DNA of 64,000 nucleotides from Liolophura sinensis (taxonomy: Eukaryota > Mollusca > Polyplacophora > Chitonida > Chitonidae). Shown here one piece after another: positions 16,601-19,600 of the stretch. The notes beneath the pieces were generated by a model that saw only the letters and a program-made list of their open reading frames with translations, did not search any database and was not told the origin of the DNA. How positions within the stretch are numbered: the stretch's first letter is position 1; every line of letters starts with the position of its first letter. The stretch lies in NCBI RefSeq assembly GCF_032854445.1, contig NC_088301.1:51571187-51635186 (forward strand). The letters are read 5' to 3'. The translations under genes and the position numbers were made by a program.

Positions 16601-19600
16601 TTTTCGGCAGACATGATCAGGGTCCAACTGATCATTAAAATTCGTGAACTTATTGCTATAAGGTTTCCAAGACTTCAAAGTCGTGGATAAAGGGTTTATT
16701 TTGGAAAGTCCTTCAAAGTACTTTTTCAGTTGTAAATTTTGTGCAACATTATGATCAAAATGGTCTGATAAATAACCTATCAAGTGATGTACAGTGTGTG
16801 TTGATCTCTAGACGAAGATAGTTGAATATAAATATGTTTACATTGTAGTTTATGCTGTTTTCAGGGACTACCCTGACACCAGGTACCCAAACTGTGCGTG
16901 TGCCAAGCACGACAATCCTGAAAGCTGCGTCTGGAGGTGCCACAATGGCTGGTAAACAGATCATCACTGTGCACAAAGCAGGAGGAGCAGTGTCAAACCA
17001 GCCCCAGATTGTCACATTGGTGAAGACTTCACAAGGGATGACAGTAGCTACAGTATGTTTCTACTTTCCGGTTTTCGTACGGCTGATAACTAAGGCAAAC
17101 ATTTGTATACTTGTATAGAAGTTGCTTGTGAGGTAAAGCTTTATTTTTTAAATGTTTTAAAATTGTTAACATCATTAAACACCAATCAGGCATTAAAAAG
17201 AATAGGTTTTCAAATTTAAATTGCCTAATGAAGTTCTAATTTCACTTACATATTGGTTGTACTTTAGCCTGTTTGTTTCTTTTGTAGACCAAAGCCCCAT
17301 TGCCACAGGGAGCCACCATTGTAAAACTAGTGACAACGCAGTCTGGGGCAGGAGGTAAACCCACAGCGATCATCACCGGGAGCAACCCTGGCCAGACACC
17401 CTCCAATATTATGGGCATTAGCAGCGTGCAGCCACAGGTAATAAACCATAAGACAATTTCAAATAATGTTTTAAAATTGTGCAGATATGATGGATTAAAT
17501 TTTTAAATGACTGTGTTTGTTTGCATGTTTGGTAAAGCTTAGAGAATTCATACCTGGATAAAAGTTTCAGGTTGCCATAATGGCAGAATAACACAGTCTG
17601 ATTTATTCAGTATTTTTTGTATTCTTTGCACAGACTGCAAATAAAGCGGTGACAACACTTATCAAGACCATTCCCTCAAATATGTTATCCATGGCAAAGT
17701 CTGGGTTGGCTACACTGAATACTGTGGGAGGAGGAAAGCAAACGATCGTTATCACAGCGCCTAAAGGAGCTGCAGGTACCCTTGGGGCCTCAGCTCAGGG
17801 TAAAATCCTCTCGGCCATGCCGAAACTTGGAGCTGGCGGAAACACACAGTTCATTGTTGTGAGTTCCCAGCCAGGGGGCGGCACAACTCATGTGACATTA
17901 CCTTCAAGTGTGGCTTCATCAATTGTTGGTAAGTTTCGGTGAACCAGATGTTAATAGCTTTTCTTGCTTGTATGTACAGTTTTCTTGGTTTTAGTTAATG
18001 GTTTAATAGGTCTATGCATTATTAGGTTCAAGTGTAACTCATTAAATGAAAGCATGTTTTCTGGTGAAGTCTATATCATTAAGTTAATGAAAAGAACAAC
18101 CTTTTTTCATTTTGGCGACTTTGTACACTCCGATTGTTATAGCCTTCTTCATCCTATACTCGGATATCACCGTTTTGTTTTACAGGTAGTAAACCTATCA
18201 CAGTTACAGCTTTACCAGTATCCTCAGCAGGTGGAATACAGCAGCTAACGACCATCCCACAGGTTGTGTCAGCATCCTCAAAACCAATGGTGACTCTAAT
18301 CACAACATCGGGTACGTGTTGTTTCTGCTCTCTGAGAAAAGTGAAATTTACTGATTACATGACATGTGCTAGAAAAATTCAGACTGGATATGTCTGAATA
18401 AGAAAAAAATATTCTGTCATATATGAAATTTGCTCATTTTGACAGGTTTCTTGAGAAAAAGAAACACAATTCGCCACAATAGGAATGTTTGAATGTCATT
18501 TGTTATAACACTTATAACTCAAATGCAATTTAAGCAGCATAAATTTATGTGATATTTTGTTCACAGTTCCTGGTATTGGTACGGCAACCCTGACTACAAC
18601 AGGAAATACTACTGGTCTTATAGCAACCACAACAGCAGCTACATCAATCATTTCATCCCCATCAGTGCTACCATCATCAACTATCAAAAGCCCAACCATA
18701 TCACTCATTGCACAACCAGTTCCTGTCACTAGCCAAATTGTCACCTCACCTGCAGTCAAACCAGCTCCAACAACAATTCAGGTGTCTGTCCCTCAAGTCA
18801 AGCCTGTGGTGGCCACACCAGATCCACAGCCCATGGAAACAGATCAAGATTGTCCACCTGGAAGTGGCCATTGTCCCCCAGGAAGTGGCCATTGTCCACC
18901 AGCTGGTGATCAACTAACTGAATCCACTGATTGTCCACCTGGAAGTGGCCATTGTCCTCCTGGAAGTGGACATTGCCCTCCTGCTGGTGATCAACCTTCT
19001 GAATCCACAGATTGTCCACCAGGAAGTGGCCATTGTCCCCCTGTTGGTGATCAACAAACTGAATCTACAGATTGTCCTCCTGGAAGTGGTCATTGTCCTC
19101 CTGGAAGTGGCCATTGCCCTCCTGCTGGTGATCAACAAATTGAATCTACAGATTGTTCTCCTGGAAGTGGCCATTGTCCTCCAGGAAGCGGCCATTGTCC
19201 TCCAGGAAGCGGCCATTGCCCACCTACTGGTGATCAACAAATGGAATCTACGGATTGTCCTCCTGGAAGTGGTCATTGTCCTCCTGCTGGTGATCAACCA
19301 TCTGGATCCACAGATTGTGCTCCTGGAAGTGGCCATTGCCCTCCTGCTGGTGATCAACCTTCTGAATCCACAGATTGTGCTCCTGGAAGTGGCCATTGCC
19401 CTCCTGCTGGTGATCAACCTTCTGAATCCACAGATTGTGCTCCTGGAAGTGGCCATTGTCCTCCTGCTGGTGATCAACCATCTGGATCCTCAGATTGTGC
19501 TCCTGGAAGTGGCCATTGTCCTCCTGCTGGTGATCAACCATCTGAATCCACAGATTGTCCGCCAGGAAGTGGCCATTGTCCTCCTGCGACTGGGAATAGT

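What the first reader, a model, noticed from the sequence alone, without database searches (positions are those of the whole stretch)
18848..19585. HCF-1 carries a novel Cys/His/Pro/Gly repeat array in place of HCF-PRO repeats
Eleven units with 16 GSGHC motifs form a strongly periodic 245-residue segment unlike the vertebrate threonine-rich repeats cleaved by OGT, but at the same place in the protein. The regular Cys and His spacing (D-C-x6-H-C) could bind metal or form disulfide or redox-sensitive contacts. It could also be an independent solution to the tasks of the HCF-PRO region (proteolytic maturation, partner docking).
Basis: partly seen in the sequence, partly recalled or inferred. Interest (0 to 1): 0.85.

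Follow-up and report, generated by a model that had tools for sequence, protein, structure and literature searches.

The report
Chiton HCF-1 cysteine-histidine repeat array
A chiton's version of the gene-control protein HCF-1 carries a run of near-identical cysteine- and histidine-containing repeats where vertebrate HCF-1 has its cleavage repeats; the core of each repeat looks protected by selection, but it is not a version of the vertebrate repeats and its job is unknown.

Summary
Window 18848-19585 encodes 246 aa in 11 DC-units with 16 GSGHCPP heptads, 27 Cys and 16 His, inside one 1,536-bp exon of a 23-exon, 1,627-aa HCF-1 model, at the border of the basic and acidic regions. Assembly statistics point to the chiton Liolophura sinensis, published as L. 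japonica.

The array is an in-frame tandem expansion: units 7 and 8 are identical over 60 nt. It does not look like pure drift: the five variable nucleotide columns of the 16 heptads are all third codon positions and all their changes are silent, while linkers carry replacements. A 63-bp repeat elsewhere shows no significant bias in any frame.

It is not an HCF-PRO repeat: no Cys-Glu site, no threonine region, similarity no better than shuffles. No Taspase1 consensus is present, only a degenerate SQLD|TATT, although Taspase1-like and OGT-family exons exist. The substitute-protease reading lacks support.

Most likely it is a disordered, multivalent Cys/His linker, perhaps metal- or redox-responsive; this mechanism is inferred.

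The parts
10239..22969 (+). HCF-1 gene, 23 coding exons, 1,627-aa model
   Evidence: all 22 introns GT-AG, one open reading frame; Kelch_HCF E 2.2e-196, fn3 E 1.1e-11; Fn3n matches 4go6. Exon borders placed by eye, helped by recalled human HCF-1; no transcript support
18567..20102 (+). exon 17, 1,536 bp (divisible by three), holding array and most of the acidic region; by the model's phases it could be skipped without breaking the frame
18848..19585 (+). Cys/His repeat array, 246 aa, 11 DC units, 16 GSGHCPP heptads, HCF residues 919-1164
18848..19252 (+). units 1-5, four of them with extra GSGHCPP heptads (27 or 34 aa)
19253..19585 (+). units 6-11, single heptad, 60-bp period, last unit partial; units 7 and 8 identical in all 60 nt
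19586..20102 (+). acidic region (31 D+E against 7 K+R over residues 1165-1336)
20054..20077 (+). degenerate Taspase1-like sequence SQLD|TATT (residues 1321-1328)
   Evidence: found; consensus from PMC3102056 (passages); lacks Gly at P1' and Asp at P3'/P4'

Best explanation
The array is an in-frame tandem expansion at the basic/acidic border of the chiton's apparently single-copy HCF-1, probably limited to its lineage (not tested). Shown from sequence: it is open coding sequence in an HCF-1 exon, its units are duplicates of one another, and its 16 heptads differ only by silent changes while the linker carries replacements. Inferred: it makes a disordered, acidic, multivalent chain whose repeated C-x5-H-C groups coordinate a soft metal ion such as zinc or copper, or cross-link on oxidation, so that the tether between the Kelch/basic half and the acidic/Fn3 half of HCF-1 is compacted or docked in a metal- or redox-dependent way. 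It carries no protease site of either known HCF kind.
For: 7 of 7 minimal changes in the 16 heptads are silent (P 0.5e-4 to 1.7e-4); the 5 variable columns are all third positions (P 0.001); core dN/dS 0.06 against linker 0.66; core S10 N2 against linker S4 N9 (Fisher P 0.015). The 63-bp array in L002 gives no significant bias in 6 frames (lowest P 0.14). Cys is local: 27 in the array, none in residues 373-918 or 1165-1399. All 16 His precede a Cys-Pro, and there is no K or R in 246 residues. Single-sequence AlphaFold2 gave mean pLDDT 42.9, 255 of 293 residues under 50.
Against: No standard metal-site pattern is met: zinc knuckle, C2H2, CxxC, CxC, CC and a RING-like pattern are all 0 in the array. 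The core/linker split was made after seeing the units; over whole units the bias is weaker (S14 N11, P 0.001-0.006; column permutation P 0.011) and units 6-10 alone give P 0.20. Heptads were collected by exact protein match, though the layout leaves no misfit heptad; the words ESTDCxP/GSTDCxP at unit starts may be diverged heptads in which His became Asp, which would weaken the invariance. Changes among copies are few and not independent. No sister species, transcript or protein data. The fold run had no alignment and DSSP gave nothing, so it excludes no metal-induced fold.
Confidence: 0.4

Rival explanations
1. Tolerated spacer: a coding minisatellite that expands and contracts in a disordered linker, with no ligand; selection only purges residues that would aggregate, fold or create sites.
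For: Units 7 and 8 identical in 60 nt, so expansion is recent and length is probably variable; low-confidence model consistent with disorder; non-conserved HCF-2 linker sequence is suggested to be not functionally critical (PMC6582346, passages); no Pfam match and no convincing structure match.
Against: A spacer should accept Ser/Thr/Ala/Gly swaps, yet 16 of 16 heptads are identical in protein while 5 of their 7 codons vary; keeping 27 free cysteines in a nuclear linker is costly if they do nothing (inference).
Confidence: 0.38
2. Heme-regulatory array: each HCPP is a Cys-Pro heme motif with an adjacent His, so HCF-1 would sense heme or iron status.
For: 22 of 27 Cys are in Cys-Pro and 16 of 16 His sit directly before one; Cys-Pro peptides bind heme, and the closer a His lies to the motif the more six-coordinate complex forms (PMC10377097, passages); disordered regions of BACH1 and BACH2 bind heme, with Cys-Pro motifs involved (PMC11699347, passages); the heptad itself carries no D, E, K or R; a chiton genome paper speaks of an iron-responsive genome (PMC7850002, title and abstract start only).
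Against: Net negative charge appeared to inhibit heme binding in nonapeptides (PMC6356037, passages) and the array as a whole has 29 acidic and no basic residues; a BACH2 fragment without Cys-Pro motifs still responded to heme, so Cys-Pro is not decisive; the hydrophobic flanks usual in such motifs are absent (recalled).
Confidence: 0.1
3. Independent proteolytic-maturation module that does the work of HCF-PRO.
For: Same place between basic and acidic regions, repeated, and coded in one large exon, as in vertebrates; OGT-family and Taspase1-like exons are present in the genome; the Taspase1-like sequence looks degenerate.
Against: No Cys-Glu anywhere in the protein, at most 2 Thr per 10 residues in the array, no Q[FILVM]DG; no similarity to HCF-PRO beyond shuffles. 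An unknown protease cannot be excluded.
Confidence: 0.06
4. Annotation or assembly artefact: the array is an intron, a skipped exon, or misassembled.
For: No transcript seen; exon 17 is a multiple of three and could be skipped; open frames over repeats are cheap here, e.g. the 17-bp satellite is open in several frames.
Against: Silent-change bias is strongest in the HCF frame (dN/dS 0.24; next 0.39 in the antisense frame that shares its third positions; the other four above 1); the exon joins both neighbours in frame with GT-AG borders; 738 bp is well inside HiFi reads (mean 8,347 bp, PMC11068029, passages).
Confidence: 0.06

Closest known systems
Vertebrate HCF-1 PRO repeats (OGT-cleaved)
   Same: same protein, same place between basic and acidic regions, units of 20-26 aa, one large exon, Cys and Pro-Pro present
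   Different: no Cys-Glu cleavage site, no threonine region, strongly acidic, His-Cys-Pro core; sequence similarity no better than shuffles
Drosophila HCF Taspase1 site
   Same: same linker of the same protein; a Taspase1-like exon is present in this genome
   Different: no Q[FILVM]DG in the protein; the nearest candidate, SQLD|TATT, starts 157 residues after the array and lacks the Gly and Asp of the consensus
Cys-Pro heme regulatory motifs in disordered regions (BACH1/BACH2)
   Same: Cys-Pro dipeptides in a presumably disordered part of a gene regulator, His nearby
   Different: regular array of 16 rather than a few; CPP with Gly/Ser flanks; array net negative; no heme binding shown
Coding minisatellites in disordered linkers (recalled as a class)
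   Same: short in-frame units, near-identical copies, frame-preserving length change
   Different: silent-only variation in the core heptad

Membership tests
HCF-1 (host cell factor) | N-terminal HCF-type Kelch domain | tested here: met
   PF13854 E 2.2e-196, 652 bits against cut-off 113
HCF-1 (host cell factor) | Fn3n and Fn3c elements | tested here: met
   Fn3n matches 4go6 E 8.2e-14; fn3 in the C-terminal part E 1.1e-11
HCF-1 (host cell factor) | basic then acidic regions between them | tested here: met
   K+R 31, D+E 3 over residues 451-918; K+R 7, D+E 31 over 1165-1336
HCF-1 PRO repeat | Pro-Pro-Cys-Glu cleavage region with critical Glu | tested here: not met
   0 Cys-Glu and 0 Pro-Pro-Cys in 1,627 residues
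HCF-1 PRO repeat | threonine region that binds the OGT TPRs | tested here: not met
   at most 2 Thr in any 10 residues of the array; Thr-rich stretches exist elsewhere in the protein, e.g. residues 526-538 and 830-841
HCF-1 PRO repeat | cleavage by OGT | not testable with these tools
   needs protein; OGT-family (PF13844) exons are present
Taspase1 substrate | Q[I/L/V]D|G-V-D-D | tested here: not met
   0 matches of Q[FILVM]DG in the whole protein; degenerate SQLD|TATT only
Zinc knuckle / C2H2 / CxxC metal site | spacing of ligands | tested here: not met
   0 matches each in the array; unusual sites are not excluded
Cys-Pro heme regulatory motif | Cys-Pro dipeptide, often with His nearby | tested here: met
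   22 Cys-Pro, 16 His-Cys-Pro; not sufficient
Cys-Pro heme regulatory motif | measured heme binding with functional effect | not testable with these tools
   needs spectroscopy; net charge of the array speaks against

The most novel reading that the evidence does not exclude
Chiton HCF-1 has become a metal- or heme-gated chromatin co-regulator: a 16-fold His-Cys-Pro array, gained in the linker that other animals use for cleavage, binds iron-heme or a soft metal in many copies and so ties the two halves of HCF-1, and the genes it controls, to metal status in an animal that mineralises iron.
Probability: 0.1. Interest if true: 0.8.

Novelty: new variant of a known kind. Interest (0 to 1): 0.42.

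Why it matters
The linker between the two halves of HCF-1 carries different cleavage devices in known animals: a Taspase1 site in flies and OGT-cleaved repeats in vertebrates. A third, unrelated repeat at the same spot, with signs of selection on its Cys/His core, would suggest that this linker is a hot spot for new regulatory modules, and it gives a short synthetic peptide on which metal, heme and redox ideas can be tested directly.

Tried and rejected
Homology to HCF-PRO: the HCF-PRO peptide (checked against 4n3c) against a typed unit pair scored 22, with 3688 of 5000 shuffles as good. That pair was a composite of two units, so I repeated it with real sequence: whole array score 27, 2497 of 3000 shuffles as good; units 3-4 score 22, 2057 of 3000. 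Rejected.

Relatives elsewhere: Pfam 0 families for the array; PDB 3 hits at E up to 1, best KFYI at 0.0057, not followed; genome contigs 35 pattern matches and viral contigs 5, none confirmed by tblastn. Those collections hold no animals, so they say nothing on sister species. Own genome: 32 matches, the first being the array, the second 40% identical. I fetched only L002 of the rest; it spans the second and third match and is a 63-bp repeat without the heptad. The other 29 were not read.

Literature: one search found no held paper with DCPPGSGHC or GHCPPGSGH, and one with GSGHC, a scorpion transcriptome that I did not open. One search (host cell factor and mollusc terms) listed 12 of 243 papers and (HCF-1, Taspase1, HCF-PRO) 15 of 219; none of those listed is on molluscan HCF-1 by its title. 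That is the whole basis for calling the array unreported.

Controls with limits: L002 was the second-best protein match, not a random pick; it is not proven noncoding and has only 13 changes. The 41-bp window array was read in a fixed 123-bp register although it has indels, so its null result counts for little. Units 6-10 alone lack power (all). The core/linker split is post hoc.

Full report
Observation. Window 18848-19585 reads as 246 open codons: 11 units beginning DC, 16 GSGHCPP heptads, 27 Cys, 16 His. The layout DCxP, one or more GSGHCPP, xGDQxxxSx covers all 246 residues. Cys-Cys steps are 7 (16 times) or 13 (10 times) only, and the spacing is D-C-x5-H-C. Units 1-5 are 27, 27, 20, 27 and 34 aa, four of them with one or two extra heptads; units 6-10 are 20 aa; unit 11 stops after its heptad.

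Host gene and organism. A 23-exon model at 10239-22969 with GT-AG at all 22 introns gives 1,627 aa. It has the HCF Kelch domain (E 2.2e-196) and fn3, and its Fn3n matches HCF-1 in 4go6. In the own genome 7 of 12 Kelch_HCF matches lie in this gene; the other 5, on C13 and C14, stay below the cut-off, so HCF appears single-copy. The assembly has 609,464,459 bases in 632 contigs; the Liolophura chiton assembly is given as 609,495,693 in 632 scaffolds (PMC11068029, passages), since reassigned to L. sinensis (PMC12441733, whole text). The totals differ by about 31 kb, so the species is inferred from assembly statistics, not proven.

Place in the protein. Residues 451-918 are basic (K+R 31, D+E 3); the array (919-1164) has no K or R, 29 D+E and 27 Cys; residues 1165-1336 are acidic (K+R 7, D+E 31). 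No other Cys lies between residues 372 and 1400; the protein has 10 before and 5 after the array. Human HCF-1 has its PRO repeats between basic and acidic regions, and fly HCF its Taspase1 site (PMC6582346, passages). Vertebrate PRO repeats are generally coded by one large exon (PMC4840301, passages); the chiton array also lies in one large exon, 18567-20102, a multiple of three.

Is it constrained? Among the 16 heptads the protein does not change while 5 of 7 codons vary. The least number of changes is 7, all silent (P 0.5e-4 to 1.7e-4 by transition weight); the 5 variable columns are all third positions (permutation P 0.001). For the 11-residue core S10 N2; for the 9-residue linker S4 N9 (Fisher P 0.015). 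dN/dS is 0.06 for the core, 0.66 for the linker, 0.24 for the whole unit; the five other frames give 0.39 (antisense, sharing the same third positions) and 1.0 to 5.3. Over whole units S14 N11, P 0.001-0.006; the column permutation gives 0.011. The 63-bp repeat of L002, 17 copies, has no significant bias in 6 frames (lowest P 0.14).

Against that: the split is post hoc, copies are not independent, units 6-10 alone are not significant (P 0.20), L002 is not proven noncoding, and heptads were collected by exact match, although the layout leaves no misfit. The seven residues ending each DCxP read ESTDCxP in 8 of 11 units, GSTDCAP or GSSDCAP in 2 and TDQDCPP in 1. They may be diverged heptads with His replaced by Asp. 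If so, Cys and Pro are held more firmly than His.

How it grew. Units 7 and 8 are identical over 60 nt, and units 6-10 share 55 to 60 of 60 nt with one another, against 47 to 54 for the nine pairs involving unit 5. Length is therefore probably still variable. A linker-like word occurs in the acidic flank (AGGQQMEAD, 5 of 9 letters with AGDQQIEST), a weak hint of local origin.

Is it a protease module? HCF-PRO needs a cleavage region with a critical Glu after Cys and a threonine region (PMC4549301, passages). The array has at most 2 Thr in 10 residues; the whole protein has no Cys-Glu and no Pro-Pro-Cys. The array is no more like the HCF-PRO peptide than its own shuffles are (2497 of 3000). Taspase1 has the consensus Q[I/L/V]D|GVDD (PMC3102056, passages); no Q[FILVM]DG is present. 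SQLD|TATT at residues 1321-1328 keeps the P side only; it may be a vestige like those reported for vertebrates, but that is a post hoc reading. The genome has OGT-family exons (8 matches to PF13844 in one cluster) and, among 11 matches to PF01112, an exon whose best structure match is Taspase1 (E 9.6e-11, against 1.6e-7 for the best match of another name). The enzymes appear to be there; known sites for them are not.

What else could it do? AlphaFold2 on the array with flanks (293 residues, no alignment) gave mean pLDDT 42.9 with 255 residues under 50; DSSP gave nothing. That is consistent with disorder, not proof. Standard metal spacings are absent. Cys-Pro is present 22 times and His-Cys-Pro 16 times, which fits transient heme motifs (PMC10377097, PMC11699347, passages). 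But negative charge appeared to inhibit heme binding in nonapeptides (PMC6356037, passages), and a BACH2 fragment without Cys-Pro still responded to heme. A multivalent Cys/His linker is my best guess at 0.4, a tolerated spacer almost as likely at 0.38.

Verdict. Real and coding by sequence evidence, not HCF-PRO, unreported in the held library as far as three searches show, with modest evidence of selection on the core.

Noticed in passing
window 7593-8474 (-) and 10239-22969 (+): A TMEM187 gene (PF15100 E 2.8e-69) lies head to head with HCF-1, about 1.8 kb apart. In the fish L. oculatus HCFC1 and TMEM187 are also neighbours (PMC5686071, passage), so the pair may be an ancient linkage.
   Followed up: partly
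window 20054-20077 (+): SQLD|TATT in the acidic region resembles a decayed Taspase1 site.
   Followed up: partly
window 54450-55646: A 17-bp satellite of about 70 copies is open in several frames, up to 409 aa, a trap for gene finders.
   Followed up: no
window 28838-41816 (-): Secretin-family 7TM stretches (PF00002, E 2.7e-14 and 1.1e-4) and an fn3 stretch (E 7.7e-7) on the minus strand may belong to one adhesion-type receptor gene; a fourth stretch, 41136-41816, matched nothing.
   Followed up: partly
L002 1191-2295: A 63-bp repeat, 17.5 copies, 95% matches, open in several frames but without significant codon bias.
   Followed up: yes
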